64,000 nt of DNA from Argopecten irradians (lineage: Eukaryota > Mollusca > Bivalvia > Pectinida > Pectinidae), in contig NC_091144.1 in assembly GCF_041381155.1 (NCBI RefSeq), forward strand, positions 19,353,544-19,417,543. The letters run 5' to 3'. Positions within the stretch are counted from its first letter, which is position 1. Each line of letters begins with the position of its first letter. A program made the position numbers and the translations under genes. Positions 30,673-61,180 of this stretch are shown one piece after another. Under the pieces are notes generated by a model. That model had not been told where the DNA came from. It did not search any database and saw only the letters and a program-made list of their open reading frames with translations.

Positions 30673-33600
30673 ATGATGACGAACGTCCTTCAGGTGGCAG
30701 TGTTTCTGTCCTTTGCCTTCCCTGCCAGTCCGATACCTTACACCGAGGGTGTGGAAACAGAGCCCGAGGGAGCCAGGGAGAAAAGACAAGCAAATGACCC
30801 TCGTCTGGCGGGGTATATCACACAGGCCCTTACGGAGGCTAATGCTGAGTTACTTTATCAGAAAAATCTGGATAGATTGATGTTAGAGCAAGGTAAACAT
30901 GGTATACTGTATAGTTGTTCGATTTCGTGGGTGAACATTTCGCGATTTACTGCTTATTCTTGGTGGTTTATTTTCGTGAATCACCTTTAAGCATTTTTTT
31001 AAAAGCGTCATTCACGTAAAATGATGTGTTATGTAAAGCCATGATTTTGAATATTTTCGCGAGGTTTTAAATTTCGAGAGATAGGATTAATCCGCAAGTT
31101 TTGCGAAATTAAAACCCACGCGAGTATCGACACCTATACAGAATCGTGTAGCTCTTTTATACACACATCTTTTAACAGTTGGTGTGAAATATTTTATTTT
31201 GAATGTTTTACCATCTGGGTTTTTGTCATTACTTTGAATTATTTTCGAATTTATAGTATTCAAATTTGAGATAAATGAATTTTAATAATTTTGTTAAGGT
31301 GTATTTTTAAATATAATTTTTTTATCATACATGAAATATTTGTATCTTTAGTTTTGGCTATAATATCTAGAAATCCCTGTTGTCAATTAGTAAAAGTATT
31401 AAAAAATACTGATTCACTAGATGTTTGATTGGTTTAAAGATAAAACCTTAAAATAAATCTCATTTCCCGTTGTTTAAAAGGATATATCATCAACAGATCT
31501 GGTGAAACACATCAAACACACCAGATAAGATTATCTACGGTGACGTCTTTTCTATGTTCCCACTGATGTCTGTACAAGGCGAATGTCCACATTGTACAAC
31601 TTCTCAGATCATAAATATCCGTTTTCCGCGATCTTTATGAACTTTTTCGTGTTCTATGTTGAGTAGAGTTCACATGAACACGTGTTCCTGGCCTGTTTAA
31701 ACCCACCTGTCGTGACCTCTGCTTGTTTTACAGGTATTGATATTCCCGCCGGCAGCCAGTCTTATTTTTGGCACCTGGGGCGATTTTTGTACACCAAGAA
31801 TAAAGAGGTGGTCGACGTTCTATCGGACAAGGCATGGGTTATCGTCCGCGCCACCAAACGTCTCGTAGAAATGTAAGAGTGATTCAATACACGGAAACAG
31901 ATGTCAGTATCAACGCAACTCTTCATGCATGCGTGACTTCCAAAAGTTAATTTTTATTACAGAACAACCTGGCGGAAGTCGGCATTCCTTGAAATTTTAG
32001 TTTAAAAAATGTATGATTTAAAAGTCCGTCAAATTCAAAGTGCATCTGCTAGTTTGAAGCCAACACTGTTTCACTATTACGTTATCCCATCTCAGTAATG
32101 GAAATAAAACGGTGTGTCCGAATTATAGAGACAGCAAAGATCTTTCAAATCTTGAACTCCAAATCAAGCTTATATTTTGAAAAATAAATTTATTAGTTTA
32201 AATATTTTGTCCCTCTGACGACTCTATGACTCTACTCTATATCTTTTGGTCTTGGTGTTTTAATTAATGTATATCGTCTATTGCTCATGTGTAAATGATT
32301 TCTAAACCGTTTTTTTTTTATTTTTCTGACCAGCACATTAGCACAGTGTCTGATGAAACAAATATTAAAGTGAATAGTCGGGCAAAGAAAACCAGTCTTA
32401 ATGCGTTCATTGGCCTTCCAAAAGTTCTCACATATTAATACGACGGTCAAGTTCTGCTTAGTTTCCCAGTTCTGACCATTAAAGTAAAGAAAAGTTGAAA
32501 GCATTGAAAGCGAGGCTGCGTGGAAATGTAACCACGGACAAAGTGGGCCGGGAGGACGTTTCAGAATTTCCATACTTTAAATTAATTTCTTCGTACGCAG
32601 ACAGATTTTGACGAGAGATTTTATTTTTCCATTTCATAAAAAATTATACTGGATACATTCACACCATTTTACCGACTTTAGCCATCCTTGCCCGACTGTT
32701 CACTTTAAACACACTAAAAACAACGTTGTTTTAAATTCAAATAAATCTTATTGAAATTTGTTCGCTTTTAATATTCTGTAGCTTAGAACATTTATCGTTT
32801 AGGACCGGAATGCCCCTTCGTCAGTTGATGACGAACACACAGGTAGTTGCCGAATGGCGCCGACAGGTGGAGCCAACCTGTCCGTTTAAGCCTCCGATCT
32901 GTGACTTGCGGTATCCTTTCCGCACCGCCAGTGGCTACTGTAACCACTTACAGGACACCACACAGGGTGCCGCCCTCACCAGGCAGCGGAGGATGATGCT
33001 TAATAGCTACGAGGATGGTAAAATCTGTCAGAAATCTTTGTTGTAACGATAAATTTGATTGGCTGAAACATTGCTTTGTCAGCCCGTAACATACTTTATA
33101 ACATCTGAGTTTGTACCGACGTCTACGATAGTATAAATGATACTGAATAACTAAAAGGTCGTCAAAGGAAACTTGAGGTATTGGTTTCAAAAGAAAGGAT
33201 AAATTTGAATGAATATACTAATAGCGAATCTGTTGAAAACAACGGAGATGTGAGAAACATAATATACGTGAAAATGAAGGTGTTTACTGTACTACAATAA
33301 CAATTCAAGCAAAAAATGTTATAATTGTTTTCCAATGTCACACAATTACAACATGGGGTAATTGTTAATATATAATATTCATCTGTACGGAAACATACTT
33401 TAATCAGGTTCTAAAAAGGAGGAAGCTTTTTCTGTTTCATCCTTGAAACACCATATAATTAATCCATATTCATGCCACGTTTAGCAGTGCAAGTAAAGTC
33501 AGCTCAAGCGGTATTGCTAAGCTGTAGTTTGCTAAAAAATATATTTACATATCTATTGTTCGGAAACAACATCAAAGGAAGAAGCGTTTGCAAATAGATT

Positions 33601-36600
33601 TAAAAAAAACTAAAAATTGAAAATGTACAGCTTGATAGTTCAGTGATGTCCTTTTAATCTAAGAGTAATTTTATATTCAAATTGTAAAGCAAACCGCCAT
33701 GTTTCCCATTTGGAGACCTAGTTTCGAAGGACATTTTAGTTATATTTCATTAAACAATCTGTCACTCCAGGAATCGATTATCCCCGAGTCCATAGTAAGG
33801 CGGGGAAGCTTCTACCAAGTGCAAGACTGGTCAGTAATATAATGCACAAGGCAGGCGAGTGTTCTCTATCCAGCAAACATTTCACAGTAATGATCATGCA
33901 GTTCGGACAATTTATTGAACATGACGTCATATCGACGCCAATGATATCAGGTAGGTACCGTATGTCCGCTTGTATATCCTGGTCAGCATTTTCGAAATTT
34001 TGAGGTAAAAGCGAAAAAGATAAATTTTAACGGCAGATTTTCGCGATCTTTTAAGGCATTTACGATCAACAACCTTTTCTTAATTTTTCAATATTTCGTT
34101 AATCAACTTTTCGAGGTCATAGCGATGACCCGTAAAATCGCGAATAAGCGGCCATATATAGAACATAAACGATATATTCAATGAAATTCACTAATAACAT
34201 TGTCGCTCATTCCATTTTCCTACCTTAAGATGTGGAAATATTCTAAACATAAGTAATTATTGTATGGTTTACCGTACCACTAGCACATTTCTGTAAAAAA
34301 AATATAAAGAGCTTATAACGGTAAACATGACGAATGACTTAGCTGGAATAGGAAATACGGTAATTGTATTGTAATTGATATGCATAGTATGCTATATATA
34401 CTCGCTGATTTCCTTCGTTTTTTACAGGTACAGACGGAGCCGATATCATGTGTTGTGAGGGCTCTCCCAACATTACCGCCATGAGGTGATAAGTCAATTA
34501 CGTCAGCCTAGGATTTTATATTTTTACATCACAAATTGAACCAGGCATCATTTTCCTGTTAGACCTCATAACACAGCAATTACAAAGGCCTATTTAACAT
34601 ACAATTCTGCCTTTAACGCCTATATAGAGAATTAATTTTCGAATAATTTGGTCTGTAATTCATGTACAGGTTCTTTACTTCTGAAAGACAATGTATATAT
34701 GATTAAAAAAAATCATCCAAACAAAATTACAGATGAACAATAAAATTATCGTTTATGTCTACTTCAAGTAGTTTACGAAACAAAATTTTCTAAATCATTT
34801 AAAAATAATTTTCACTTTTGATTGATACGACGAACTATCATTTCAGAACTTTGCAATATATCACATGGTTATTTGTATATCAAAAATGTAATTCTTTTAA
34901 TTATCTCTTCACTCTGTATTTCTGTAGGTCTGCCTGTTTTCCTATTAGTATCCCTCCTCGTGATGGCCGATTTTCTGAAAGCTGTATGACATTTGTTCGA
35001 TCAACACCAGGGCTAAAGCTAAACTGTGATATGGGTAACAATTAAACGTTAACATTTGTATGTTGAAATGTACGGCGGATTCGAGATCCAAAACGACGTA
35101 GGTAAAGTACCATTAACCGTCGATGAGTCCCACCTTCTAATTGATGTAACGTCATTATTTGATGTGATTTTTTTAAGTCGTAATTACCAGATGATGGGAC
35201 TAATCGGCGGTAAATTATACCTTACTTTTGATTTATCGAAACCTCCGTATTGGTGATGACAATGGTGCATTGATTTCAACTCTATTTTATAATAAATACT
35301 TTACTTGATACATTTCTTCATTTTTTCTAAGATTTTGGTCAAGAATCAAATTGCCCATTATTTTTACATTTAAATTTTTATGCATTTGTATCTTTTTTAT
35401 TCTCAAGGTATCCGGTCCCCGATGAACCAAGCCAGTGCCTTTATGGACGGTTCCCAAATCTACGGCACTTCTGAGGATGAAACAAAAGGGCTAAGGTCGT
35501 TTCTTGGAGGTACTGTGTCTTTATAACTGCTTAATCTTTGTATACAGAGATCAGATATGGATTTCGTTATTTTAGTTATGTTTTTTAATTACATTTGCTA
35601 TATACAAATTTATCATTTACGCTTAAACACTATTTTATTTATCATTCAGCAACATAATAATACATTGTTCTTCTATAAACCGAGTTATTTTAGCGTGCGA
35701 ATATTTTTTTTCTTGATCGATGAGGAATGATCGAAATACATGTTGAGTAGAACTAATAGGTCTCGGTCACGAAATTAAACTGCCATCAATAAGTTGTAAA
35801 AGCTCGAAATTAAGTTACCACGAAAAAATTATGGTGTACGTTATTTTAATTATCTTAAAATTTGTGATTGTCCTTATATAATATGAGGCTTCTTAAAACA
35901 ATTATTAACTAGTATCGATTATATGTAACAAAACGCATAAATTAGAACTGTTTCTTTGTCTTTATTGAACTCCTCAGTAATTTCTATATTGCAAATAATG
36001 TTTTGGGCATAAATTATCTTAATAAATTCTGTTGCAGACTTTGCTGTCAATATAGATTATCAGAATTATTCTATGTCGCAGCCAATTTTGAAAATGTTGA
36101 TTCATATTCAGTTAAAAACGTGCGTAAATTACATTATATTGTATGCTTATGCTACAAACCTTACAATGTTTATCGGTTACCTGTCGATACGTATTGTTTT
36201 CAGTCAATATCGTTTTTCAATAACCGTAATTCAGAAAACAAATATATATGCATGAAATGGTATTTTAGAATGATACTTGATTGCATATACATTTTATTTC
36301 CTATAACTATGAAGGAACAATCACATACAATTACGCTGGGAATACACATGTATCCGGGTTAGACAAGGGCTGGTTTAGACTAAGTATACTATGTATTTGT
36401 ATTAGATATTTATTTGGTGTTTCACTACATCCACCAATGAAGGATATTAATTTTAACTGACACAGGTAACGGACGTCGGTCCGAACGAATATGCTAAAAA
36501 TAGCAATGAAAAAAACATAAGTGTATGATTCAGCAATTATTTTAATATGGTATTTTCAAGTACGACCTTAATATTAAAAGTACATGCTTTAAAGCTTCTC

Positions 36601-39600: not shown

Positions 39601-42028
39601 CGGCCTACTACACCTTTCGGCCGGCACCATTATCTGTCTAAAAGTCTTTTCAGCTGCAATATTGCAGCTACTTTACGATAGATTTCGCATCATCGCTATT
39701 TTCAACATGTTCGCAAATACACAATTTGGCGATGCAGATTCCTGCGACGTTTTATACAATTATTCGCGAAACAATTTATTTCGCGTCCGAAAACTCTTTG
39801 TATGCCATCTCACGAAAATAAACTACTTGCATTCAGTCTAAGCAGTGGCTTAGAAATACGTTCTAGTATGATCTTAACATTTCGAAACAATGTCGTGTAT
39901 TCCACTAGCCAAACGGAATAGTAAATGAAGATGAAACTTTATTATCACTTCAGGTGACTTCCGGGTAAATCATGTACCGGGTCTCACCGTCCTTCACACG
40001 ACATTTCTGAGGGAACACAACCGCATTGCTACCTACTTCACCAGGATAAACCCTGGCTGGGACGATGAAAGGACATTCCAGGAAACCCGGAAACTTATTA
40101 TTGCTATGCTTCAGCACATGGTATTCAACGAACTACTTCCGTCTATTTTAAACGAGGATCACCTGATGAGGTACAACATCCGGTCTAGCCCTAGAGGTTA
40201 CAGTGCAACATATGATCCAAACACCGACGCTTCTATTATGATGGGATTTTCGGCAGCTGCAATGCGGTTCCCCCACACCAGAATCCCAGATGTTCAGGGA
40301 ATGGTTGATGATTCTTTTACGTCACAAAGAAATAATTTAATATTTGCCACCTTTGATAAACCAAGGTTCATCTTGGAAAGAATGGGTCAAGCTTTGAATG
40401 ACTTTGCTAGATGGCTTATTTCATTTCCGGTAATGCAAGACGACCGATTTGTCGAAGATGGGGTGAGAGATTTTCTTTTCTTGGATAACAGAGGACATAG
40501 TTTTGATTTGGTGGCTTTGAACATACAGCGAGCACGTGATCAAGGAGTGCCGCCCTACAACGAGTGGCGGAAACTATGCGGTCTTACTCCCGCTAAGTAT
40601 TTCTCAGCTGGGCCTGGCGGTCTTGTTGATCATGAACCGGAAGTTGTCAAATTGCTCTCGACTGTATACAGGTAGATTTGCACAAGGATTGTAGTTTAAA
40701 AACTTATCAGTATTAATGTAGTGAAATAGCATAAATCTTTTTATTGATTCCGTATTTTCAAAATTTATCATTGGTAAATTTTCAGAAAGTTTCATAAGAC
40801 CATAAAAATTGGTAAAAACAATCTAAATTATCTAGAACAACTTAATGATGCCTGTAATATTACGATACAGAGTTCTTTCACTATGAATAGGCTCTTGATT
40901 TCATTTATTGCTGCATGCAAACTTATAAATACATAGAGTGAGAAATATCGACTGTAATGTAAAATGCTATGTAGATGAATAAACAAAAAGACAAAAAAAA
41001 CATGTCCAGCAGGTCAGCGAAAACAAATTATATTAACAAAATACAACTGTGATATTTTTCATAAAATTATGTACCTTTACACGTCTTCATGTTATAGTGA
41101 CGTGGATGATATCGACTTATTTACTGGGGGATTGTCAGAAATCACACTACCAGGGGCAGCTACTGGACCAACATTTGCATGTATCATTGCCACACAATTC
41201 CGAAGCCTAAAGGTTGGCGACAGATTCTGGTACGAGAACATGCACCCGATCACCGGATTTACCGAAGGTTAGTCGCTATTAACAATATGGATACCTGGTT
41301 TAATGAGTATATAGGGAAGCAATCACATGAATATACCACAGCCTCCCAAAGCATACATATATTCACACACACAACACATTACATATAGAACAGACCGTCC
41401 TATATGACCCTGGCTGTTTAGAGGACGTTAAGTCCAATGAACCTCCCGTGACTTTTTCAACCGATCAGTCATATAACTAATAATAAATAGATTACTGTAG
41501 TATTGTTTTTCTTTGTTTTGTTTTAATGACAAGTTAAGAAATTGTATTTTCATATATTATCATTTTGTACAAAGCAAAATATCGTTTTTTGTAACTGACT
41601 CAAAATATGGTCCTGTTTTCTAGAACAATTAAATGAGATCAAGAAAATTCGACTATCCAGAGTAATGTGTAACAACCTCGACGTCCCAGCCATTCAACCC
41701 AATGTTTTCCGTTTCGTTGGCAACGGGTAAGTTAAATTAGTTAATGCAACATGAGTCAGATATTTATATTTTTATGTCATATAATTTGAATTCTGTCTGT
41801 ACATCCCTTATATTAGATTGTAAGTAAACGCTTTAATCATGGTATATACGAAGCTGGAATCAATCATTGTGAGCATAATAGAAGTGTGAGTGAGTGTAAA
41901 GAGTTGAAGATTTTATATCTCATTTAAGTAACGAACACTTATATTTTTCTCCTTTTTTCAGAAATACCCGCGTACCTTGTAGAGAGCTTCCGGATATAAA
42001 CCTAGAGGCATGGAAAGATGGATCCTAG
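30673..42028 (+). CDS. Secreted animal heme peroxidase A (divergent)
   Basis: A member of the animal (peroxidasin/chorion-peroxidase type) heme peroxidases, which oxidise substrates with H2O2. Twelve exons join to 723 residues: 30673-30892, 31734-31872, 32803-33017, 33771-33950, 34428-34485, 34928-35034, 35408-35509, 39331-39423, 39954-40671, 41098-41267, 41624-41726 and 41962-42028. Residues 1-20 look like a signal peptide and REKR at 35-38 like a furin site. Distal Gln238 and His242 (FGQFIEHD), catalytic Arg375, calcium loop SAFMDGS, REHNR at 391-395 and proximal His479 are present. The two heme-ester acids of myeloperoxidase are replaced: Asp by Glu241, and Glu by His378. RGRDHG reads RARDQG. 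Peroxidase B follows 4.9 kb downstream with identical intron phases. ATG 30673 follows a possible acceptor, so a 5' untranslated exon is likely. Confidence 0.92.
30893..31140. repeat. Foldback repeat of the CGCGAAAT family in intron 1
   Basis: ATACTGTATAGTTG with TTCGTGGGTGAAC and the inverse-like CCCACGCGAGTATCGACACC with TATACAG frame the segment. Similar CGCGAAA-rich stretches lie near 28880, 33990, 35700, 36950, 39660, 42340, 46780 and 55020, so this is a common dispersed repeat. Confidence 0.45.
35780..38065. repeat. Tandem duplication in peroxidase A intron 7
   Basis: The segment from about 35780 to 36947 is repeated from about 36948 to 38065. Shared words include CAGTAATTTCTATATTGCAA, GTTGCAGACTTTGCTGTCAA and CATGAAATGGTATTTTAGAA. 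The first unit has about 520 bases (about 36380-36898) that the second lacks. The second contains the transposon at 37110-37627. The parallel open frames in both units (36003-36362 and 37671-38021) come from the duplication and are not supported as genes. Confidence 0.8.
37110..37627 (+). mobile_element. ~518-bp SINE-like element, complete reference copy
   Basis: It starts AGGTAGGGCGTTAGAATTG and ends with AATCAAACAAACAAA. A 7-bp target duplication CTTTATT lies at 37103-37109 and 37628-37634. The matching position in the neighbouring intron duplicate (about 35965) has a single uninterrupted CTTTATT, which confirms the borders. The 3' tail (GGCCGTCCTTACATGACC, then GCTGTTAAAAGGACGTTAA) is the domain seen in the SINE at 20757. 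No tRNA head and no open frame. About nine other pieces occur in this window. Retroposed by a LINE by inference from the tail and target duplication. Confidence 0.8.
41305..41440 (+). mobile_element. ~518-bp SINE-like family, 3' fragment in peroxidase A intron 10
   Basis: CATGAATATACCACAGCCTC, then CCGTCCTATATGACCCTGGC and GGACGTTAAGTCCAATGAACC match the 3' third of the reference copy. Confidence 0.6.
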
Positions 42029-42145
42029 AATATTTGCTATACGCTTCAATATTTTGGAATCAATATATTTTTTGTCTTTATTAATAGCACTAAATGTTGA
42101 CAAAATTTTGAGTTATTTCAGGTTTAATTTGTCTAAATTATCAGA

Positions 42146-42151
42146 AATAAA
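42146..42151 (+). terminator. Possible polyadenylation signal of peroxidase A
   Basis: AATAAA 118 bases after the stop codon, the first canonical signal downstream. Confidence 0.4.
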
Positions 42152-43695: not shown

Positions 43696-43770
43696 ACATA
43701 CCGCATACATGGGAGGCCGTCTTTACATGACCCTGGCTAATTGGACGTTAATTATTCAAACAAATAAACA
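43696..43770 (+). mobile_element. ~518-bp SINE-like family, 3' tail fragment
   Basis: CATACCGCATACATGGGAGG, then GACCCTGGCTAATTGGACG and a CAAACAAATAAAC tail match the reference 3' end. Confidence 0.6.
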
Positions 43771-46951: not shown

Positions 46952-49900
46952 ATGGAGATAATGCGCATGTGTTTCATTATGGCATTGGTTGTGACGACAA
47001 ATGCGGAGACTACAGAGGCAGGAAACCTGACCGAAATGGTAATCCAATCAATACAAGAAGCCATCCTAATGAGTGAAACAGACCAATCTGGTAAGTTCCG
47101 CTTTTTATTATTAGTTAATTTAAATTATTTAGTTCTTTTATTTTTATTATTATTTTTTTTTTGCATTTGCATTTGCATCTTTTGATTTAACTATATTTTC
47201 TTAATGCCTTTTTGATTCCTCTTCCATTTGCTATTTTCCCCGAGATAAACTTAATTTAGTTATCTTTTCCTTTTTGTTCGCGGTTATTTTAATTTCAATT
47301 TGGAATTAGCACGAGTTTTAAATCAATTTATACGAACATAAACAGCTAATATATAATTCATATAATCGATTAATTGAATATTTAAATATATAAAACTGCA
47401 TGAAAATATTTACAGAATTTTATATTAAAACCAGTTGCCACTTCTTCCGCAACATCCCTTGAATAGGATATCCCCTTATCGAAGCTTTACCTTAAAGGAA
47501 TCAAATTGGCCCTCCTATTCTAAGTGTTCGTTACAATACGTGCCTAATGCTGTGCATACACATTTAGTATTAATTAAGTGTAGCTATCAGGTGCGTGATG
47601 TAATGTTACCTAACTCGTCTGTTGTTTCCTTTGATTTGAAAGCTTCTCATAATATTATATTGAATCCGTTAACTTGCTGTCCACTTTGGAAATGTTATCT
47701 GCGTCGCCTCAGGAATACGATAGCCCACGATCTATTTCACTAGACAAACATTAAAGCAGACTGAAAGGTGAAAAATTACATACCATTGATATCTGAAGTT
47801 CCGAAAACCCCATTGAAATGAATTTAAAATAACGACGGATACAATTTTATACGACTTTGGCATTTATCATTTAAGGCGTCATTGAAGTGACTTTCTGATA
47901 ACTGTTTAAACGAAACATGATGTGGCTTCTTTGTAAAATAATTTACCCATTGAATTAATTGAATCATAATTGTACACAGGAAAAAGTGAATACACGTTTT
48001 ATGTACGTTATAAAACGCATGTTGAGGACCACGCATGTAAAAAGTACGTACGAAACGTATGTAATACATGTGTTAAACATGCGTAATACGAATGGTAAAC
48101 AGACGTAAAACGTAAACGCATGTAAAACGGACGTTTCAAAACATGTGTTATACATACGTTTGATCCTATTACAAAATCCACCTTTTTTGTTTTTATGTAC
48201 ATTTACATTGTCTTTGAAGTTGCACCATATATTTGTCATTTTCAAAAGTAAAGTTTAATTCCATTTTATTTGTATTTTCGGTTCCCGTCCAATGACTGAT
48301 ATTTTTTCATACATACACAAGAAAAAGTGCATACACGTTTTAAGTACGTTATAAAACGCATGTAAAACGCATGTTGAGGACCACGCATGTAAAACGTACG
48401 TACGAAACGTATGTAATACGTGTGTTAAACATGCATAATACGCATGGTAAACAGACGTAAAACGTAAACGCATGTAAAACGGGCGTATCAAAACATGTCT
48501 TATACATACGTTTGATCCTATTACAAAATCCACCTTTTTTAAATGTTTTATGTACATTTACATGGTCTTTGAAGTTGCACCATATATTTGTCATTTTCAA
48601 AAGTAAAGTTTAATTCCATTTTATCGGTTCCTGTCCAATGACTGATATTTTTTTCATACATAGTATGTTGTATTTACAAACGAGTTACTACATTGATAAA
48701 TTTCATAATCTTAGGATGATTTTATTTTTTCTACATCAATTTGTCCTTAACGTCACTTCATCACTTACATTTTTAATAAAGGCTTAAATCTTTACTAAAG
48801 TCGTGCCCGTGTTTTCAAATTCTGGCTCATGATCCAGAAATCAATTTATTTGCACATTGTAACATGTAAATACATTTTTTTCCTTTGCATATGCATAATG
48901 AAGCTACACGTATAATCCTTAGCTACATTTATAATGACAATTCTAGGGTATATACTCATGATCTCGTAGATCAAAAAGCATCCTCAATACTCCAGAGGTT
49001 TCGATCACTTACGATCTCTACATAGATCGTAAGTGACCGGAACCCCTGGAGTATCGAGGATGATCAAACAACAGTTGTAGACTTACTACATTGTACATCA
49101 TAAAGCGCTGGTCAGTTGATATTGATCATATGTATTCAGAGAATTAGTCTTCAAAACTGTTAAAATTAAAATTTAAAAAGACGGAATCCACATTAGCGGT
49201 TTTGCTTCTGTTCACAATCAGTAGATGTACATATAATTGTATACCTACATGTATCATCATACGATATTGAAGCTGCATTATTCTATCATGAGGCTAGTAT
49301 GAGGTTCACTATAAGTTGGTAGAAGACATATATAGATAACATGAAACCAAAACATAGAGGCTATTAAACATGTATTTGCATATGGGAATATCATTTTCGA
49401 AAAAAAAACCACTGCAGGTCTTCAATAACAATGATAAAAGTAATGTTTTACATGTAATTAGTAGGGTTAATTTAACAGACGTCCGTTTTACATGTGGCGG
49501 AAAACAAACTGCGTAAAACATATGTTAAACATACGTTTAACGCATGCTTTGTTCAAACGTACGTTTTACGCATGGTGGCCAAAACGTACGTAAAACGCAT
49601 GTTTTTTCAACGTCTGTAAAACATGAGTTGCACTTTTTGCTGTGTATGTCAATTGGATAAGATCTTTAGGTTATGTTCCCATTCTGAGACACACCAAAAG
49701 TGTATATAGTAGTAGTCTCCACTCCTGCTTACCGCATAAATGGTGTTGAAAGAATTGTGACCGTCGAACAGAGTGTGATGTTCGGTGCTATATCTGCTGC
49801 CCCTATTGCATGATAGTAAAAGGCGACTAAATTTTGGATCTTACCTTTTCTCTTCTTCCTAACTTCTCCTATATAAAGTCTCCCTTGACACCGATTGCCC

Positions 49901-52900
49901 ACACGCCATAGAGATGAGACCGTCCTCAAATGATCTTATATTCAATAATAAAACTGTACTTATTTTCTTGTGATAGTTTGTACCGTCTTTTGATACCAGA
50001 AAAACCAACATCATCGGTTTATTATCTCCATGTTTATAAGTCGTTTCTTAAAACAAAGCATATTTACTTGTCACTTTACTATAATAAGTTATTATCAAAT
50101 ATTATACAAAAATACGCTTAGTTCATTAGCAGTGTTTTTTTCTTTTCTTTTAACTTTAACTGCCATTTGAATTCCACAAAGATGGTCCATATGTAAGAAA
50201 AGCAGGAAAATCCGCCATGCCAAGTGCCGTCACAGGGTGTACGCTGTGGCAACACTCCCTCTTTTCCTCCGCCAGTGGGAACTCGGGTCGTGTGCCACAA
50301 ACCGACAGAAATGCTGCTCTTTCCATTTCGGCATTACGAAAGTTTAATGTAAGGTATGTTACATGATTTATGGCAATAAAGAGGTGTTTTTACTTCTTGT
50401 GTGATCAAACAGTTGATAAGGGGATATTGTGTAACGGAGTCTGATATTATTTGTTTTGTGTAAGGTGCTTTACTTGTTCAAGTAGACCAGCACAACTGGA
50501 ATGAGACAATTACTAGATTCTATCCGTTAAAAGTAGTTTTTCCCTGCTATTTCGTATATCCTCCTTCTCCTTAACATAACTCGTTCCGAAATAATCCGAA
50601 GTATTTTAAAGATGCTCCAACGCCGACAGAGCATACATGATATTCATCAGTTGAACAATGATTGGTGTTTGATCATGTATATATATTCTAATTAACACAA
50701 AAAATAATATAAAATAATTTATTTCGGATTTGGTGCATGCGCAATCAGTACTTCCTTCCATATAGGATATAGTGACACGGATTTTTTTCGGGATCCAATT
50801 AATTATTTTTCATATTTTTAACTTGAGGTAAAATTAGAAGCTCAAACTTTTCAATGGTGGTAATGGTGTAAAGTAAGTAACTTTTGTAACTGAAGAAAAA
50901 TACTAAATCGTCTGTTCCTGTTTTTAATAGTGAAAAAATGCCATTTGTCAGCGGTGGAGCATCTTTAAATAGGACATAATGAAAGATGAACCAAAAATCG
51001 ATTTCCATTTTTATGATAATCTCAAAGAAAACTTCCTTTCAGATATCAAAATCCTGAAATAATTCCCTCGTGTACCTAATTATCAATGGATTTGACGATT
51101 ATATTATAGATATCGTAAATACTCGTGAGTTATTAGGTTCTAAATTACTAAGTAGTAATTAAGTAGTAAAGAAAACTGATTTTATATAAATTAAAATTTC
51201 TGACAATATTAAACTAAGTAGAAAATTTAACATAATTACATGGATATTGCCATTACAAATATTTACAAAAAGTTTTCCTCAAACCAACACAAACACGCGT
51301 CTTTACATAACGCGATCGTATATAGCCACGGGAGACGAATCTACCTACCGGTATCTAATACCTACCTGTCTACAGGTGTGTACAGGTCAACATTATTAGA
51401 CATCTTTTTCTATTAAAGAGTGTACCCTAACTTATTTTCGTATGCGATTACATTTAAGGTACATGTATTGTAGGAGCTAGTATTTTAGGTATATGTATTT
51501 TAGGAACAATAAAAATAAGTAAAAAAAATAATTGCAAAATAATTTTAATTACTTGTACAGCAGTAATTTAAAAACCGTAAATTGCAAAAGCACACCGACG
51601 CTAATAATTCATTAAGCATAGAAACGAAAATTTGAGTCTCTGCGAAAAGTTTACAACAGTCTGATTGTCAATTTATAAAATATTTCATTATGATTGTAAT
51701 ATCTCTAATAAGAAAAGCATCCCTATCAATAAAAGTTATATACTTTCTTTAATTACTGTGTAAACATGCTTCGTCAATAACATAAAACATATTTGTATCC
51801 AGACCCGGAATCAATACCAATGGTAACAAAGACTGGTGTTGAAATTTCGATGCAGTATGTTCATTCTTCCAAAACACCTAGTCAATGTTTATGAGTTGCC
51901 GCACAAATTTATACACTATATAAATTATTTGTTTGTCCTTTTGAAGGTCAAAGAATTATTATCAAGGCTATGTTCTGGGTCGTATGGGGTCGATAAAATG
52001 TTTCCTTGTAGGTTACGAAAGTACTGATAACTTATTTTCAGTCAATATTCGTTTATATAATGTTTGTTTTATCACTGTTTTTGTTTATCCTTTCAATCAT
52101 ATAGCATAGCCTCAAGGAGTACATTTACTGTACCTTTGTAGGAAGTGATTCCTTTTTTTCAATTTGTAAACAACCCATATAATGACTTATTTCAATTCTA
52201 AAGATCCCGGACCACTGGCCCGAAGCCAATTACAACTGATGAAGCTCTACTACAAACGTGGCGGTCACAAATAGCTTCAAAGTGCACACCTTCGCCTCAG
52301 CCTATGTCCTGTAGTCTGCTTGATAGATACAGAACAGCCAATGGGACTTGCAATAACATACAGAATCCGTTATATGGCTCTTCACATATGCCGCATCGAC
52401 GACTGCTGCCTCCGGAATATGACGATGGTAACGAATAATCTACTCACGGATCTCGTTATACAACGCTCCCCTATTATTTCTTCTTCAGTTGATTATTTTA
52501 CTGGTGCTAATGAAGTATAATTACTACACAATAAATATACCCAGTTAGGAGTGATCGATGGTTTATTGTTTAATCTATATATATGTTTCCAAAAACTTAC
52601 GTGATCCTTTGAGAAGATCGCATTGACAATTAAAAAACATATAACTTCTCATAAGTGTTCCAAAGGGAACATAATTTACAATATACATAATCTAAACAGT
52701 CTTTGTTCCAAATTTCCGGCTATAAATTTCAAACAGAGACTGTTTATATTATGTATAATTAAAAAATACTTATTTTATCGAATAAGATATCTTAAGATTA
52801 CACTCAGGGCTATAAAGAGGGGGTCATTATCACATAACCAAATGTACCGAAGCTTAATATATCATCAGGATATGGCACCTTGTAGCATGTTGCTTTATCA

Positions 52901-55900
52901 TCCAGATATTATTTTACTGGTGCTAATGACGTTATGTTATAATTACTACTCAATAAATATACCCAGTTAGGAATGATCGATGGTAAATTGTTTAATCAAT
53001 ATCTGTTTACAAAATATTATGTGACTCTTTCAGAAGATCGTATTAGCAATTAAAAATACTTATTTTATCCAACAAGATATCTTAAGAATACACTCAATGC
53101 TACCAAGATGGGGTCGGTATCACATAGCCAAACACCTGTCTGATGTGCAGATGCTTGGTGTATCATCAAAACATGGAATCTTGCAGCATGTTGGTTAATC
53201 CTCAAGATACAATTGTCAGACTAAATAATGGTGTATTAAAGTTGTTTTGTGAATGAATAGCTTATATAATATTGAAGAAAATTACGTCATAAAGTTAATT
53301 TAATCTACGGTCGAACTGGTGAACATTATGTATAAATAAATGTTAGTAACTATTTATCTTATTATGTTAAAATTGAGGGGGAGTATTAATATTAAGAGAA
53401 CGTATTGCAGAGGGCTTCGTATAAGTTTAATAACTTGTGTCTAATCCATTGCATTGTTAAGATATTTTAAATAAAAACTAAACTTAAAACTTAAAGCATA
53501 AGATAAAAGTACTCGGTTTATAATCTGGTAACAGAACATGAAACTGTGGGTCAATCAAGACACAAACCGATGATACTTCACGCTGTGTTGCATAACATAA
53601 GCGTCCTGACATATCAAAGGGAACCTGTCAGAACTTGTCTCTTCTTTTGTGACAGTGACGAACACTACATAATCGAAATATGTTGTTCTTACGAGAACTA
53701 TCACGTATATAACATCTTTACAAGTTTTCTTACATGTACAACATCTACCTTTGCCCCGGGCAAAACTGTTCGTTGTAAGCATACTGAAATTTGAAATATG
53801 GTGCATTATATTTCTTATAGATATTATTAAACAAATATATATCTTTACTTTGTATACAGATATGAAGGTATCTCTTTTAGAAATAATTTCATTCCGAAAA
53901 TAAAAATTCATTACTTCAAACTATTTCAACTACACATTTGGATTTAAAAAGAAATTAGGAGTATTTCACATTATTTTTAGTTATTTTGAATTAGTAGCTG
54001 GTATTTTGTTTTCAAAATAAATACTAATATAATCTAAATGAAATAAATACTGATGAGGAAAAACGGTATAAAGCTAGTATATTAATAATCCGAAATAAAA
54101 GGCCAAAATAAATTCAAAGTAAATATTCAGCCACTATAGGGCTTTCTTCAGTCCGAAATAACACTAACACAACGTGTTCGTCTACATGTTTGTTTACATC
54201 TATTGTGTGCAGGTACGAAATGTCTCGGCCCGTTTGATGTAAACGGCGGGTTATTTCGACCCAACATGCTATGTGCACTAAATCAACCCCAGTGTTTAAA
54301 CAATGGTTATAACCGCAAGATACTTTTTTAGATAGACTCGTGTAGCCATAAACATAACACTGACGTATCAAAAGGGGATATTATATGCAATCACATGCAC
54401 GGTCGAAACGTCAGACATACCAGCTTTTCGAGGTGGCAATCGAAAGAAAAGTTTGACAATCGACTAAGGGTATGTTATTGTTTTGAGACAACTCGTACCT
54501 CACACTATTCTGTAGACATAATGCCTATTACTGATAATACTGATTGTTGATATCTAACGAAGGTTATAGATACAATACAAATGATTCCGGTAATCTGCTT
54601 CTGCCTGATACTCCGTTAATTGTTTCATTATAAAGTTGCATTAGTTAAATATCAATGTACACGTCGTTAGATATATAATATAATGATACTTATTGTGATG
54701 TTTCCTTCTAGGCATTGATTCGCCTCGGACCCGAGCAGAAAACGGCTCGCTGCTTCCTAGTCCTCGGCTGATCAGTAACACACTACATAGTTCCAGTACG
54801 TCATGGAAAAGCCCCAGCTTCACCATCATGTACATGTCCTTTGGTCAGTTTCTTGATCACGACATCACAAGCACTCCTTCCATGAAAGGTAGGACATTAG
54901 TGATGAAATGCTAAAAATTATTTGGTCGATTTGTTGCAAAATATCCAATACGAAACCAACAGATATTAAACATGCAACATTTAATTGATTGACATTTTGC
55001 AATATATTTTGTACTCCGAAAAATATTTGCGAAATTTTGATTTTCGCAATTAAAAGTATGATAAAAATCGCGAAAAAAATTGTAACACTTTTCATAATTT
55101 TCTCTGAATTAAAAATGATTTAGCATTTAGAAATGATATTATAGAAACAATGGTATGAAATTAGTCATAAGAATAAATTTAAAAGTTCTAGGAAAGAACT
55201 TGCAGGGGCATTGCCTATTGCCTATTTCTTTTTTTATTTGTTATTGGAATAAAATTATATTGAAATAGCTTACATGCTACTATCTAATACCGACATCGTG
55301 TCTTAACTGATAAAATGAACCGCTTTCGAAAAACAGTAATCGCTATGAGAAAATGTAAATTAATTAATTTGATGTGTCATTTCAAACAAACATTTCCTAA
55401 CCTTGGTTTTAATTCCTCTATATTTAATTTTGTTATTTCATCAGATGAAAACAACAATCCTATTGACTGTTGCCAAGATAACAACGTTGTGCAAAACAGG
55501 TGAGCGGAATTGCATCATCATGTAGCGTATAGCAAGATATTTCCGCGATTGTTGACAAGAAAATTTAATTTCAACAGTTTAAGATACTGTGATGCGGCTG
55601 TATCGAGTTTTTTAACTTAATTTTGGAGAGTTTTTGTACATATATGTGATCTTGCATCACATTCAATGCGGTTATTGAAACTGTCACATTCTAAATGACT
55701 AGATATTTTTCCTGAAAAATTTGAAATTGTTTTGAGATCTTTAATATGAACAACAAAAGATATTTCCAAGATATGCTTTACCCTGTATTGCAATGCTTGT
55801 TATTATCTACTTTAGTAAAAAGAATGTAAATTAAATTATCTTTTTTGATGAAATGTTGTTATTCTCATTTTTCAGTGCATGTTTCCCTATAGGCATACCT

Positions 55901-58900
55901 GATAACGATGAGAGATTTGTCACAAAATGCATGAGCTTTACACGATCGGCAGCGGCAGTGAACAACGGATGTGATCCTGGCAAGTTTAGAATATTGATCA
56001 CTCTATTGAATTTAGGCAACATTAACTTTTTTGATGAATTATGTTTTACAATCAATGTCTTATATATCGATGAACATTTAAATATGATACGATAGAGTGT
56101 CGAGTGTGTTCCTTTAAAGTTAATGTTCTTTCGAAAATCGATTAAAAACTTTCTTAAAATATTGCAATCATTTTGTAAGTACATTGAGGTTCAGACTTTG
56201 TGCATCTTGCCAACTACATCATTAGAAATTTAGTTTTTAAAATGCATTGTTCATGGCCTTACATTAGAATGCTTTTAAGTCATTGGCTTCACTGCAGAAT
56301 CCTAGAAAGACGAAGCAGTTATAAAGTACAGTAAAATCCATAAGGCTTGATGCATATCTCGATTTTGACATAACCAAACACTCGTGCGTGCCATATATCG
56401 AATGACATGTTTATTATTGTAATTACCGATATTTTTAAAATCAAAACAGATTATCGTCAACAAATAAACCAGCTGACATCCTACATAGATGCTTCAAATG
56501 TGTACGGGTCTTACCAAGAGACTCAAGATCGACTAAGAACGAAATCGGAAGGTAAAATGTTGTCGCGAGAACAATTGATTAATATATAAAAATAAACAAA
56601 ACATGTCCTTACATAATCTAAATGCCGGGGGTTTCCAACATTTTGTGACCCTTGGGTAGAATATCCCTATCCTTCATATCCACGTACGAGTCTTATATTA
56701 ATAAGATGTTTTAATCCGATATTGCTACTTAGATTATGCAGATATTAAAACATTCATATCAAACATCTTTAAATAAAAAGGTTATCAAATACAATTTCTC
56801 GAATCAATTTTGTTCGCCATGAAATTTAAACTCTTGTCGATAATTTATATTATGTATAGCAACTATACAGTTACTGATGACTATTTTATAATAACTCAAT
56901 CCTCATGTTCGCCTATATTGTAATGCCCAATGGAGTTAAAATTTATACGTTTTTCTTAAAATGTTTTCATCATTAATGTTGTAAAATTACCGCTTCCGTT
57001 TTGAAGGACGCATGCGCGTATCAGTCAGTGGCGACTTACTACCATCCTACAACAGCGACACCTGTGTATTGACTGATTCGTCGTCAACACACTGCTTTGA
57101 TGCAGGTATATATGGTATTATACATTGTTTTACGTGAAAGCAATTATCATGGCATACAATCGGTATAGCTAATTTAAAGAGACTAGTGACAGTAATACAA
57201 AAATACTGTTTGAATAAAAGAACGGATTTTATCTACCAAAATGCGAACCGGTTGCATAATATAGTTTACAAGAATTAGATTAAATTATTTCAAAAAAAAA
57301 ATAATTTATATGTTATAGTATCGCCGTTAAGTGTACTTAAGTGGCAATGAGCCCAGTAGAAAAACATTTACAGTGACTACAATCAAGTTTTGTTCGTACA
57401 CAAAGAAATCCCAATAGATATATTATTTAATCGTATATAAATAGTACTATTTTGAATTTGGTTGCTACGACACAGGCTTTATAATATAAGTATAATCAAA
57501 TTATCTTAGATACAAAGAATAGATACATACATATTTCAATATAATTGACTTTAAATTATTATATCACGAAAATAACGGTAAGATAAAACCTATCTCTCTG
57601 CTAACAAATAAACATACAATTTGTTTTCTAATTGCTGCAGATTGGTTTCCTCCACAGGTGATGAAAGGCATTCTGAAGTACCAACTTTAACCACATTACA
57701 CATAGCCTTTCTGAGAGAACATAATCGGATAGCTGATCAGCTCCATCAACTGAATCCTGACTGGAACGACGAACAAATATTCCAAGAAACGCGGAAAATT
57801 GTTGGAGCATTACTTCAGCATATAACATACAATGAGTATCTTCCTATAGTGCTTGGGAATGACCTAATGGAAAAGTTTGACCTGCGGCCATCTCCCAGTG
57901 GATTCAGGCATGTCTATAATGACACTATAGATGCGACTTCATTCAATGCGTTTGCAACGGCGGCATTCAGATACGGACATTCACAAATACCTGATCAGAT
58001 CATGTTACTCAATCAAAGGTATAAAAAGAAGGAAATCATTAATGTAGAAAGTCACTTCTTTAAACCGGACATTATGTTTAAGAAACACGGTCCCGAGTGG
58101 TTAGGGCGTTGGCAGGTTTCACGTGCCCAGAGGAAAGAAGATAAATCCATTCAGGGGAGTGTGAGAAATTTTCTATTTTTAGATTCGAAAAATGACAGCC
58201 TTGACCTTGCTGCTTTGAACATGCAACGAGGGCGTGATCACGGCCTTCCTTCATACAATGCCTGGAGAACATGGTGTGGTCTTGAACAAGTAACACACTT
58301 TGGTTACCGAAAGGGAGGTCTCATCGATCATTCACAATATGCCAGAAAAAAGATTGCCAGTCTTTATAGGTACACATTTATTTTTCCCTTTGAAACCATG
58401 TTCAGTCAGGATGTTACGCAATCTAATTAAAATTAGACTTATAGTTTCGCTCCAATGCGATGCTCCACGATACGCTCCAATACAAAATCTGTCAACTCCC
58501 AGTTCGGGGTCATCTCTGCAAATTGTAACATCTCGGGATGTACTGTTAACCTTTTATACTTTCGGGAATATCAACCACACAGAAGATTCCGTAGGCGAGA
58601 CGCTGATTGGCTAACCACAGGAGTTATGCTGAGGTGACCAGGAACGGGAAGTTGTTAGATGTTGTATTGGTGCCTATCGTACAAACCAAATATTAATAAG
58701 ATTGGATGTTACGAATTATATCCATAAATACTCAATGACCCTCAAATATATATTTTGCACTTGTTAATAAATTAAGTTTCCAAAGAGGCATCTTAATACA
58801 ATTTTCTCATCATTGTAGTTACTACAATATATAGGTATATACTAACTATGAGAAATAAAGTAATATGATAGGCATTGATGATAGAAAATACAATCCTTGT

Positions 58901-61158
58901 AACCTTACCCTAAGAGTCTTTCCGAGAAGGGACAAGTAATTCACAATTTAGTTGTCATTAAATAATTCTGCACAATCTCAATTTGTATAAAAGTTTTGAA
59001 GAAAATCAACAAAGCGCTAATTAGAATGTGCTTCTTGACGTTTTTGTTTGTCATATACAAATTCAAATTTAGGGTTCATTACAGAAACAAGGTTTCAGAT
59101 ATATATACATAAATTTCCAGCTCCCCTAACGATATTGATCTCTATAGATATATATACCTATATTTTCAGCTCCCCTAACGATATCGATCTCTATAGCGGA
59201 GGTCTATCAGAGAACAGGATACTCGGAGGGCTGGTCGGACCAACGTTTGCTTGCATACTGTCCCAACAGTTTAATAATTTACAAAAGGGCGACAGATTTT
59301 GGTATGAAAATGATGCGCCAAATTCCGGATTTACAGAAGGTAGATATACTAAGAGGTCTCATAATTGTATCTACAATGCATTATAAAACATATAAAGGTT
59401 TTCCTTACACATACAATCAAGTCTAGCTTTACGTATACAAACCAGTCTTGTAACGTTATTTATCCCATAACAATGCAAGTTTCACTATTGAAAAATCATG
59501 TGATAAATTCAATAGCAGTTGGTTATCATTTATGTTTACACACTCCAGTGTGTAAAAACCTATATATAGCTACGGCGCCTCTGATTGGTCAATTCCAAGA
59601 TCTCAATTAGCTTTCAACTTCAGGCTATTCTAATAGCGTATTTTGTTTTAAATAACACTGTATTTACTGAAAAATAGGTAGTTGCTTATTCAAAGTATTT
59701 AAACAATAGAACATGAGTTATGTATTAAGGCACTATACTTTATTGCGGAAAGATATCATTACACATTGTATGGTGGAAAGTTCCCCTAAATGAAGACAAG
59801 AAAACGGTCACCATGGTATAAACATAAACATAAAGTTATGGATAAATAAGCTCCCTAACGCGTAACTGTTGTTTATCATGTTTATCAAACTCGAGTTAGT
59901 TAATTTTCGAATTTTCAAAAGACAAGCTCGTGTCTTTTCAAAATTTGAAAATTAACTAATTGGAGTTTGATAAACATGATAAAAAACTGTCACTTGTTGG
60001 GGAACCTCTATACATTATACATTATCAAACATATGAAGATTTGCATTATATAAACCAGAGTAGTAACAGTATCTACTAGTCACTGTCAGATATATAAAGG
60101 TTTTCAAACTATTTTCGTCCCTTGCTTGGTTTGTGGATTATTGTTTCCTTAGAATTTCGTGCCCAGGATGTTTAGGCTTTTCATATTTGTTGTAGCACAA
60201 CTTAATGAAATCAAGAAGATGACACTGTCCTCAATACTATGCACAAATCTCAACTTGATAAAAACACAACGGAATTCATTCAGAATGAAAAACAAATCGT
60301 GAGTACAAACTAATCACAGCAATATGTTAAGAGATATACTATAAACACATGTGAAATTCTTAAGTCAATATAGTAATTTGTAGGCAAAAAATTGCAATCC
60401 TGTTTAATTTTATCGGAATATGAAAAAAAATGTTTGCAAACGCGGATTCTTAGAAAAGTTTCCAAACGATTTTTTTCATAATCCGATAAAATTAAAAAAA
60501 ATAGTGACATCAAAGCTTTGATTTTATAACCTATATTAAATGTACCATTCTAGTGACTTTTCAAGAGATTCCTTTTTCCGAATCTATACGAAACGTCGAT
60601 GTCTCTATTGTGACGTCACAATAACGTGACAATAATATTAAAATATATATACTGTAAATTTGCTTTCAATTTTCATTCTTTGCGAACATTTCATTTTTTT
60701 AAGTTTTTTCTGGGTTGCATTCATCACCTTTGTAAAGTAACCTTTAGTCATACCAATTACGACATTGACAGATCACGACTGTCGTAAATTTGTCATTATC
60801 TTTAATATATGACGTAAATTTAGAATTTTCTCTGAAATTGCATATTAAAAAATTTAAGTTAATCATCATTTTTTTTTTGTTTTGGTATTTATTGTGATTT
60901 TAAAATAATTCAGAGAAGGATATATATATTTGAATAACATATACTTTGGGTTACCTGTTAAAGGTATTAATGTTATTATCATAACATTGAACAAAAAAAG
61001 ACATACGTTGGCGAAGAATGGGAATTGGGCGCACACACAAGTGACCCCATGTTTATAAAGTAGTTTTTCATTGCAGTGACAACACGAGACAGGAATGCAG
61101 TCAGCTACCATCCATCGACATGACAAAATGGGCAATAACCCAGTATAGACACTATTGA
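46952..61158 (+). CDS. Secreted animal heme peroxidase B (canonical residues)
   Basis: Tandem paralogue of peroxidase A. Twelve exons give 672 residues: 46952-47090, 51803-51854, 52204-52427, 54712-54888, 55445-55499, 55876-55979, 56450-56551, 57007-57105, 57658-58369, 59170-59339, 60196-60298 and 61077-61158. All phases equal those of A. Exon 6 ends at a GC-AG donor (G|GCAAGT); the others are GT-AG. The start gives a short hydrophobic signal (about residues 6-18). Conserved parts are Gln184-Asp187-His188-Asp189 (GQFLDHD), Arg321 and Glu324, REHNR, proximal His425 (FRYGHS) and LNMQRGRDHG at 504-513, so both heme-ester acids and the catalytic set are intact. Exon 2 (52 bases) is short and least certain, and intron 1 (4.7 kb) could hide another exon. 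The last exon (ECSQLPSIDMTKW) has a second copy at 61717. A secreted oxidase acting in matrix, shell or defence is inference. Confidence 0.9.
47978..48615. repeat. Two tandem units of 341 bp in peroxidase B intron 1
   Basis: GAAAAAGTG(A/C)ATACACG at 47980 recurs at 48321, and similarity runs to AAAGTAAAGTTTAATTCCAT in both. Inside are many overlapping words of the type CGCATGTAAAACG and ACGTACG. A related block at about 49490-49645 ends in GCACTTTTTGCTGTGTATG, inverse to the unit's start, which suggests a terminal-inverted-repeat element. The open frames across these units follow the repeat and are not genes. Confidence 0.7.
48979..49062. repeat. 39-bp-arm hairpin (foldback)
   Basis: The arm starting CATCCTCAATACTCCAGAGG (48979-49017) pairs with 49024-49062, ending GGAGTATCGAGGATG, with few mismatches and a 6-base loop. 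A half copy (CATCCTCAACACTCCAGGGG) lies near 63650, so this is a dispersed hairpin family. Confidence 0.75.
49490..49645. repeat. CGTAAAACG-rich block, relative of the 341-bp units
   Basis: Words ACGTACGTAAAACGCATG and AACGTACGTTTTACGCATG occur in both orientations, ending GCACTTTTTGCTGTGTATG. Probably a diverged copy of the same element family as 47978-48615. Confidence 0.5.
49665..49940. mobile_element. ~518-bp SINE-like family, rearranged copy
   Basis: The middle part (GAGACACACCAAAAGTGTATA) precedes the 5' part (GCTGCCCCTATTGCATGATA, then AAAGGCGACTAAATTTTGG). The order is permuted relative to the reference, so the locus has been rearranged. Confidence 0.55.
50610..50964. mobile_element. 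TTAA-type MITE, family 1, copy C
   Basis: TTAA on both sides (50606-50609 and 50965-50968). Termini AGATGCTCCAACGCCGAC and GTCAGCGGTGGAGCATCT. 355 bp, very similar to copy B throughout, for example GTGCATGCGCAATCAGTACTT. Confidence 0.85.
52493..53180. repeat. Tandem duplication in peroxidase B intron 3
   Basis: TTATTTTACTGGTGCTAATG begins both units (about 52493 and 52910). Shared downstream words include AATATACCCAGTTAGGA, ATGATCGATGG-like and GATATCTTAAGA. The second unit is shorter. Non-coding. Confidence 0.7.
58450..58675. repeat. Foldback repeat in peroxidase B intron 9
   Basis: GCTCCAATACAAAATCTGTC / GATGTTGTATTGGTGCC and GGGGTCATCTC / GAGGTGACC pair as diverged inverted arms. Same family as the B4GALT7 intron copy at 17745-17922. 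Confidence 0.5.
59112..59199 (+). repeat. Duplicated splice acceptor and exon-10 start of peroxidase B
   Basis: CAGCTCCCCTAACGATAT plus TGATCTCTATAG (59118-59148) is repeated 49 bases later as CAGCTCCCCTAACGATAT plus CGATCTCTATAG at the true exon start (59170). Use of the upstream acceptor would meet a stop (TAA in CCCCTAACG, read in another frame) within about 20 codons, so it would act as a decoy. Confidence 0.75.
59849..60004. mobile_element. Foldback MITE with ~75-base arms in peroxidase B intron 10
   Basis: The arms include GTTTATCATGTTTATCAAAC and its exact inverse GTTTGATAAACATGATAAA, plus AGTTAGTTAATTTTC / GAAAATTAACTAATT. They meet at AGACAAGCTCGTGTCT with almost no loop. Confidence 0.75.
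60405..60493. repeat. 35-base-arm hairpin in peroxidase B intron 11
   Basis: AATTTTATCGGAATATGAAA at the left pairs with the inverse TTTCATAATCCGATAAAATT at the right, with further pairing inward (GTTTGCAAAC / GTTTCCAAAC). Confidence 0.65.
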
Positions 61159-61174
61159 AGATGTTGTTATAGTA

Positions 61175-61180
61175 ATTAAA
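61175..61180 (+). terminator. Possible polyadenylation signal of peroxidase B
   Basis: ATTAAA 17 bases after the stop of exon 12. The same word is present after the duplicate exon. Confidence 0.3.

What the first reader, a model, noticed from the sequence alone, without database searches (positions are those of the whole stretch)
30673..61158. Tandem peroxidase pair with identical intron phases, one copy altered at the heme-attachment residues
Seen: both genes rebuild to 12 coding exons with phases 1,2,1,1,2,1,1,1,2,1,2, and exons 7, 10 and 11 are equal in length. B keeps Asp187 before the distal His and Glu324 three residues after catalytic Arg321. A has Glu241 and His378 at those places and RARDQG for RGRDHG, yet keeps the distal His242, Arg375 and proximal His479. 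Known: in myeloperoxidase-type enzymes the Asp and Glu esterify the heme and tune its redox potential. Inference: A has lost at least one covalent heme link and may have a new or reduced activity.
Basis: partly seen in the sequence, partly recalled or inferred. Interest (0 to 1): 0.72.

Follow-up and report, generated by a model that had tools for sequence, protein, structure and literature searches.

The report
Animal peroxidase missing heme-link residues
Two neighbouring animal peroxidase genes are real and one lacks both usual heme-anchoring residues, but it looks like an old family member rather than a freshly altered copy, and about half of the peroxidases tabulated in this genome have dropped the same glutamate anchor.

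Summary
Observation confirmed. Genes A and B each rebuild to 12 coding exons with the stated phases and equal exons 7, 10 and 11. A has Glu for the ester Asp, His for the ester Glu, Pro before the proximal His, and RARDQG, but keeps distal Gln and His, catalytic Arg, proximal His and Asn, and the calcium ligands.

The framing changes. I tabulated 30 An_peroxidase genes (A and B included) in the window's 846 Mb genome. The equal exon lengths recur in paralogues. A is not clearly B's sister: its exon 2 has counterparts in g18076 and gC4_45, none found in B, and synonymous sites are saturated. The Glu site is non-acidic in 15 of 30 genes. The Asp site is changed in 6 of 26, all six also without the acid. 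In 80 prokaryotic homologues Glu is 80/80. So this genome has several times discarded a near-fixed heme anchor while keeping catalytic residues.

Most likely A is a secreted peroxidase whose heme is held by at most one bond. Natural loss of anchors is known elsewhere. No orthologues or RNA were available; recent constraint on A is untested.

The parts
30673..42028 (+). Gene A: An_peroxidase, 12 coding exons, 730 aa. Exons 30673-30892, 31734-31872, 32782-33017, 33771-33950, 34428-34485, 34928-35034, 35408-35509, 39331-39423, 39954-40671, 41098-41267, 41624-41726, 41962-42028
   Evidence: PF03098 E 5.5e-164
33917..33919 (+). A Glu248 codon (GAA) at the ester-Asp site; distal His249 follows
   Evidence: aligned to MPO
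39962..39964 (+). A catalytic Arg382 (CGG)
39971..39973 (+). A His385 codon (CAT) at the ester-Glu site
40271..40276 (+). A Pro485 (Gly in 24 of 25 genes) and proximal His486
31734..31872 (+). A exon 2, similar to exons in g18076 and gC4_45; no counterpart found in B
46952..61158 (+). Gene B: An_peroxidase, 12 coding exons, 672 aa. Exons 46952-47090, 51803-51854 (weak), 52204-52427, 54712-54888, 55445-55499, 55876-55979 (GC donor), 56450-56551, 57007-57105, 57658-58369, 59170-59339, 60196-60298, 61077-61158
   Evidence: PF03098 E 6e-188
54855..54857 (+). B Asp187 codon (GAT), canonical ester Asp
57675..57677 (+). B Glu324 codon (GAA), canonical ester Glu

Best explanation
A is an intact, old paralogue in a large animal heme peroxidase family. 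Within this family the glutamate that normally esterifies the heme has been given up several times while the catalytic residues were kept. In A the Glu is replaced by His, and the Asp is conservatively replaced by Glu. A is probably secreted (hydrophobic N-terminus and a REKR site at residues 35-38, seen in sequence only). It should bind heme through the proximal His and form compound I with the kept His/Arg pair, but with the heme held by no ester or by one at the Glu248 site. By analogy with Dictyostelium PoxA it would have a lower redox potential and favour easy substrates (iodide, thiocyanate, tyrosine or other phenols) over bromide or chloride. Shown: gene structure, residues, family pattern. 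Inferred: heme linkage, redox potential, substrates, secretion.
For: Intact 12-exon gene with GT-AG introns. A keeps 103 of 113 columns conserved in at least 85% of rows. Across the genes with data catalytic Arg is 30/30, distal His 25/26, proximal His 25/25, Asn 17/17, against Glu site 14 E + 1 D of 30 and Asp site 20 of 26. Holding the 15 genes without an acid as one clade is rejected (p-AU 4.2e-6); the tree needs at least 6 changes, 3 forced by well supported branches. Glu is 80/80 by motif in 80 prokaryotic homologues. A's six pairwise dN values are 0.53-0.62 with pS 0.74-0.80, which speaks for constraint over its history. The one pair with dS well short of saturation (gC4_45/g17908), both without the acid, has omega 0.285. 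PoxA has a single ester, -0.276 V and very slow bromide oxidation (PMC5787809, passages).
Against: No RNA, protein or orthologue evidence. A has three changes no other tabulated gene shares (His at the Glu site, 1 of 30; Glu at the Asp site, 1 of 26; Pro before the proximal His, 1 of 25), which could mean decay. PoxA lost Asp and kept Glu, the mirror case, so the analogy is imperfect. dS saturation cannot show recent constraint.
Confidence: 0.58

Rival explanations
1. A is a non-catalytic or decaying peroxidase: heme binding and activity are largely lost and the protein is structural or on its way out.
For: Pro before the proximal His (1 of 25), RARDQG (Gln in 2 of 17), 10 of 113 conserved columns changed against 0 for B. 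A relative, gC4_45, has Ser/Ala/Phe at the distal Gln/Asp/His and Val at the Glu site, so members with a spoilt pocket exist.
Against: Catalytic and proximal residues kept in A, calcium ligands kept with Thr to Ser at one; open frame and splice sites intact; gC3_7 has more conserved columns changed, 12 of 113.
Confidence: 0.22
2. One reading: A and B arose by tandem duplication, B kept the ancestral site and A lost it.
For: Adjacent, same strand, same phases; sister grouping only marginally rejected (p-AU 0.048; 0.114). In the exon-4 search with A's exon 4, B is the best other hit by a little (52%, 57.3 bits, against g18076 46%, 56.5 bits).
Against: Exon lengths recur in paralogues; A exon 2 found in g18076/gC4_45, not in B; highest identity over the tree columns 46% to g18076; B groups with g17864 and g17892 at 98/91, though at only 87/83 on 16 rows.
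Confidence: 0.08
3. A's His385 makes a new covalent bond to, or ligand contact with, the heme edge, replacing the ester.
For: His aligns with the residue that esterifies the heme methyl in MPO and occurs only in A (1 of 30).
Against: No precedent in this fold known to me (recall); not testable by sequence; 13 of the 15 non-acidic sites are Val, Ile or Leu.
Confidence: 0.07
4. Gene model, assembly or annotation error.
For: B exon 2 and both first exons have weak support.
Against: The residues in question lie in strongly homologous exons 4 and 9; CAT against GAA differs at two bases; exon 9 of A is single copy in a DNA search.
Confidence: 0.03

Closest known systems
Dictyostelium discoideum PoxA (PMC5787809, passages seen; PDB 6erc by recall, listed as Peroxinectin A)
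   Same: Same superfamily; a peroxidase that naturally lacks one ester residue and stays active
   Different: PoxA lost the Asp (Ile) and keeps the Glu ester; A lost the Glu and has Glu at the Asp site. Eight of the 26 genes here with both sites read are the mirror of PoxA: Asp kept, Glu lost
C. elegans HPX-2, MLT-7, BLI-3 and human DUOX1/2 (PMC6368334, passages seen)
   Same: Said there to lack the covalent heme-binding residues conserved in mammalian peroxidases; DUOX still binds heme weakly
   Different: DUOX and BLI-3 are oxidase fusions (recall); A is a single An_peroxidase domain. No sequence comparison with them was made here
Peroxidasin group Pxd2 (includes hsPxd02) and short peroxidasins (PMC3533774, passages seen)
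   Same: Natural loss of Asp94 (Pxd2, short peroxidasins), and Glu242 not fully conserved in short peroxidasins
   Different: Most peroxidasins are multidomain; Pfam finds only An_peroxidase in A and B
Mollusc byssal and shell-matrix peroxidase-like proteins (PMC6641155, passages seen)
   Same: An_peroxidase domain with signal peptide in a mollusc; function called enigmatic
Myeloperoxidase and lactoperoxidase
   Same: Closest solved structures by sequence; distal His and Arg, proximal His and Asn and the calcium motif align
   Different: They keep both ester residues; MPO adds a Met link, where A and B have Val

Membership tests
Animal heme peroxidase / peroxidase-cyclooxygenase superfamily (PF03098) | Full-length match to the family profile | tested here: met
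   A 547 bits, positions 1-530 of 530; B 626 bits, 1-530
Animal heme peroxidase / peroxidase-cyclooxygenase superfamily (PF03098) | Distal G-Q-x-x-D-H-D signature (PMC4420034) | tested here: not met
   A has GQFIEHD (first Asp is Glu); Gln, His and second Asp kept. B meets it
Animal heme peroxidase / peroxidase-cyclooxygenase superfamily (PF03098) | R-x-x-E signature (PMC4420034) | tested here: not met
   A has R-V-N-H; B has R-H-S-E. Not met in 16 of 30 genes of this genome (14 E, 1 D, 15 non-acidic), so it fails as a family-wide criterion here; membership rests on the profile
Animal heme peroxidase / peroxidase-cyclooxygenase superfamily (PF03098) | Proximal His with Asn partner | tested here: met
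   A His486, Asn568, Arg571
Animal heme peroxidase / peroxidase-cyclooxygenase superfamily (PF03098) | Heme ester-linked to protein | not testable with these tools
   Needs protein
Peroxidasin | Extra LRR, Ig or VWC domains (recall) | tested here: not met
   Only An_peroxidase found in A and B at E 0.001
Peroxinectin | Integrin-binding KGD/RGD motif | tested here: inconclusive
   None in A; B has KGD at 594 but inside the GDRFWYE core seen in many paralogues, so not informative
Recent tandem duplicate pair (A with B) | Sisters in the tree, low dS | tested here: not met
   A-B pS 0.766, saturated; not sisters in either best tree, with only marginal AU rejection
Mollusc byssal/shell peroxidase-like proteins | Closest relatives among those proteins | not tested
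   No eukaryote sequence collection beyond the window's own genome and the PDB was available

The most novel reading that the evidence does not exclude
One animal genome holds a natural ladder of active peroxidases with two, one and no heme esters, in which the Glu ester, fixed in the prokaryotic homologues examined and kept in mammals, goes first and the Asp second, so that paralogues are tuned to graded redox potentials; A, with Glu/His in place of Asp/Glu, is at the end of the ladder and may use His385 as a new heme-edge contact.
Probability: 0.25. Interest if true: 0.65.

Novelty: new variant of a known kind. Interest (0 to 1): 0.42.

Why it matters
Covalent heme attachment is described as the unique feature of this superfamily (PMC4420034), and the number of ester bonds is said to track its redox potential (PMC5787809). 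A genome whose own paralogues span both anchors, Asp only, and neither would let the role of each bond be tested in natural enzymes rather than in mutants. It also warns that the R-x-x-E signature used to assign these enzymes is missing in 16 of the 30 members tabulated here.

Tried and rejected
Considered and rejected: equal exon lengths as a mark of recent duplication (they recur in paralogues); His385 as a single base-calling error (two differences from GAA); a second haplotype or near copy of A (exon 9 single copy; the same search for B failed). Pairwise dN/dS for A: synonymous differences too high to correct for 5 of its 6 partners, dS 3.23 with g18076, so no branch estimate. Does Asp loss depend on Glu loss? 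Fisher p 0.017 on 26 genes, but the tree-aware test has only 4-5 independent pairs and cannot reach significance, so the order is a suggestion. A structure prediction was not run: the tool takes window sequence letter for letter, and spliced proteins did not clearly qualify. NCBIfam gave nothing useful. Meitzler 2009 is not held; no listed paper held the term D225E. One search returned no models because of a wrong program option and was rerun; the exon-9 pattern was too strict and was redone.

Rows dropped. Four genes without an exon 4 in hand (g17908, gC4_24986, the two labelled DUOX) are outside the Asp count of 26. One cyclooxygenase-like gene (L042) and lone exon-4 hits on C8 and C9 are outside the 30. 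One further PF03098 match, C4:42069072-42069260, was never fetched after one search failed and is outside the 30. The first search scored only 81 of 202 candidates, so 30 is a lower bound.

Full report
What was checked. I rebuilt both genes from the sequence. A has 12 coding exons (30673-42028), 730 aa, GT-AG throughout; B has 12 (46952-61158), 672 aa, one GC donor. Phases are 1,2,1,1,2,1,1,1,2,1,2 in both, and exons 7, 10 and 11 are 102, 170 and 103 nt in both, as reported. A's exon 2 is supported by similar stretches in g18076 (42% over 38 residues, E 5e-8) and gC4_45 (34%, E 0.045; 50%, E 5e-8 when g18076's is the query).

The residues. A has GQFIEHD where B has GQFLDHD, and GDFRVNHV where B has GDERHSEV. 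PDB alignments place these at the ester Asp and Glu of myeloperoxidase. A keeps distal Gln245, His249, Arg382, proximal His486, Asn568, Arg571 and the calcium ligands (Ser for Thr at one). It also has Pro485 before the proximal His, where 24 of 25 genes have Gly, and Gln575 where 15 of 17 have His. A is thus an edited but not gutted active site.

The genome around it. The window lies at C11:19353544-19417543 of an 846 Mb genome with 1508 contigs. A Pfam search and follow-up searches gave 30 An_peroxidase genes, A and B included, that I tabulated. Left out are one cyclooxygenase-like gene, two lone exon-4 hits and one match (C4:42069072) that was not fetched. The first search scored 81 of 202 candidates, so 30 is a lower bound. 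The labels DUOX (two genes), peroxidasin-like and cyclooxygenase-like are mine, by motif and recall.

Exon architecture. In models of 15 paralogues exon 7 is 102 nt in 11 of 15, exon 10 is 170 nt in 9 of 14 and exon 11 is 103 nt in 5 of 13 that got a model. The models were sought under A's and B's phases, so they do not test the phases freely, and several low-scoring ones are doubtful. Still, the equal lengths cannot be read as a mark of the A-B pair.

The family pattern. At the Glu site 14 genes have Glu, 1 Asp, and 15 no acid: 10 Val, 2 Ile, 1 Leu, 1 Gln, and A's His. At the Asp site 26 genes had an exon 4: 20 Asp, 6 changed (A Glu, gC3_7 Ser, gC4_45 Ala, g9514 Asn, and two near-identical genes on C13 with Lys). 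Assignment of 11 exon 4s to their genes rests on contig, strand and order, with gaps of up to about 16 kb. All 6 Asp-changed genes also lack an acid at the Glu site; 8 lack that acid but keep Asp; 12 keep an acid at both. By contrast catalytic Arg is 30/30, distal His 25/26 and proximal His 25/25. So the anchoring residues vary while the catalytic ones are held.

How unusual is that? By motif search Glu is present in 80 of 80 and Asp in 73 of 80 (4 Ser, 2 Ala, 1 Asn). The set was ranked by similarity to B, which has Glu, so some bias is possible, but one residue of 112 has little weight. In that set the Asp is the looser anchor; in this genome the Glu is.

Relationship of A and B. In a 30-row tree that leaves out the trait columns, B groups with g17864 and g17892 (98/91) and A lies outside. 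Forcing A with B costs 10.4 log units, p-AU 0.048; with the 16 best-filled rows it costs 8.7 units, p 0.114, and B's own group drops to 87/83. A with g18076, gC4_45 and g17908 is not rejected (p 0.457) and is in the best 16-row tree at weak support (66/73). The shared exon 2 favours that grouping; no counterpart was found in B's fully covered region, while upstream cover for g17864 and g17892 was short. In the other direction, A's exon 4 alone matches B slightly better than g18076 (57.3 against 56.5 bits). The three other genes of that grouping lack the acid (Val GTT, Val GTT, Ile ATA), so A's line may have lost Glu before His appeared. Forcing all 15 genes without the acid into one clade is rejected (p 4.2e-6); the tree needs at least 6 changes, 3 of them forced by supported branches. 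Regain in B or g17892 is not excluded.

Selection. For A's six partners pS is 0.74-0.80; a corrected dS exists only with g18076 (3.23); dN is 0.53-0.62. That speaks for long constraint on average but says nothing about recent times. Of the 21 pairs only gC4_45 against g17908 is well short of saturation (dN 0.138, dS 0.49, omega 0.285). Both lack the acid, and gC4_45 also lacks the distal His, so loss of anchors does not mean loss of constraint there. A keeps 103 of 113 columns conserved in at least 85% of rows; B keeps 113 of 113; gC3_7 keeps 101 of 113.

Mechanism. With the distal His/Arg pair and the proximal His-Asn-Arg set intact, A should bind heme and react with peroxide. It cannot form the Glu ester. 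Glu248 might still reach the heme methyl: I recall a lactoperoxidase mutant with this change that attaches heme at least partly, but no listed paper held it. Dictyostelium PoxA, with one ester, has -0.276 V against -0.183 V for lactoperoxidase and oxidises iodide and thiocyanate fast and bromide very slowly (PMC5787809, abstract and passages). I therefore expect a low-potential peroxidase for easy substrates. Mollusc shells contain peroxidase-like proteins whose role is called enigmatic (PMC6641155, passages); matrix cross-linking is a fitting but untested role for A.

What is known. The two signatures and their ester role are in PMC4420034 (passages). Loss of Asp94 in Pxd2 and short peroxidasins, and of a fully conserved Glu242 in short peroxidasins, is in PMC3533774 (passages). 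HPX-2, BLI-3, MLT-7 and human DUOX are said to lack the covalent residues in PMC6368334 (passages). Eight searches of an open-licence library, of which I saw listings, showed no title or abstract start on repeated Glu loss in a mollusc peroxidase family; that is not proof of absence.

Verdict. The reading of one altered tandem copy should be replaced by an old paralogue in a family that has repeatedly dropped the Glu anchor, A being among its most altered sites. New variant of a known kind.

Noticed in passing
window 60772-61299 and 61405-61938: A tandem duplication with about 640 bp spacing, pieces 95-100% identical, repeats B's last exon (exon 12) and its flanks just downstream of the gene.
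   Followed up: partly
window 59097-59194: A 49-bp tandem duplication copies B's exon 10 acceptor and first codons, giving a second acceptor-like site just upstream.
   Followed up: no
window 35946-36359 and 37611-38018: A's large intron 7 holds two very similar stretches of about 400 bp on either side of repeat-like sequence, as if an element had inserted (seen by eye; not measured).
   Followed up: no
G000:C4:45302500-45316400 (L016, L017): gC4_45 has Ser, Ala and Phe at distal Gln, Asp and His and Val at the Glu site, with omega 0.285 against g17908: a candidate inert peroxidase under constraint.
   Followed up: partly
G000:C9:31125600-31125950 (L048): A lone exon 4 with WGSLLVFD, like gC4_45's WGSLLAFD; no other exon of it was seen in the searches.
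   Followed up: no
G000:C13:13517700-13518700 and 13530000-13531000 (L029, L030), with exon 4s L051 and L050: Two near-identical neighbouring genes with Val at the ester Glu and, by the exon 4s assigned to them, Lys at the ester Asp and His at the distal Gln.
   Followed up: no
G000:C11:17906000-17928800 (L018, L019, L056): g17908 has no exon 4 found in the stretch fetched and reads AEPR where most others read GDxR: possibly truncated.
   Followed up: partly
window 15743-16768: A glycosyltransferase family 7 (galactosyltransferase-type) gene upstream of A (PF13733 E 2.6e-22 on two exon pieces joined).
   Followed up: partly
window 8616-10884: A tandem array of about 14.6 copies of a 155-bp unit, 94% matches.
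   Followed up: no
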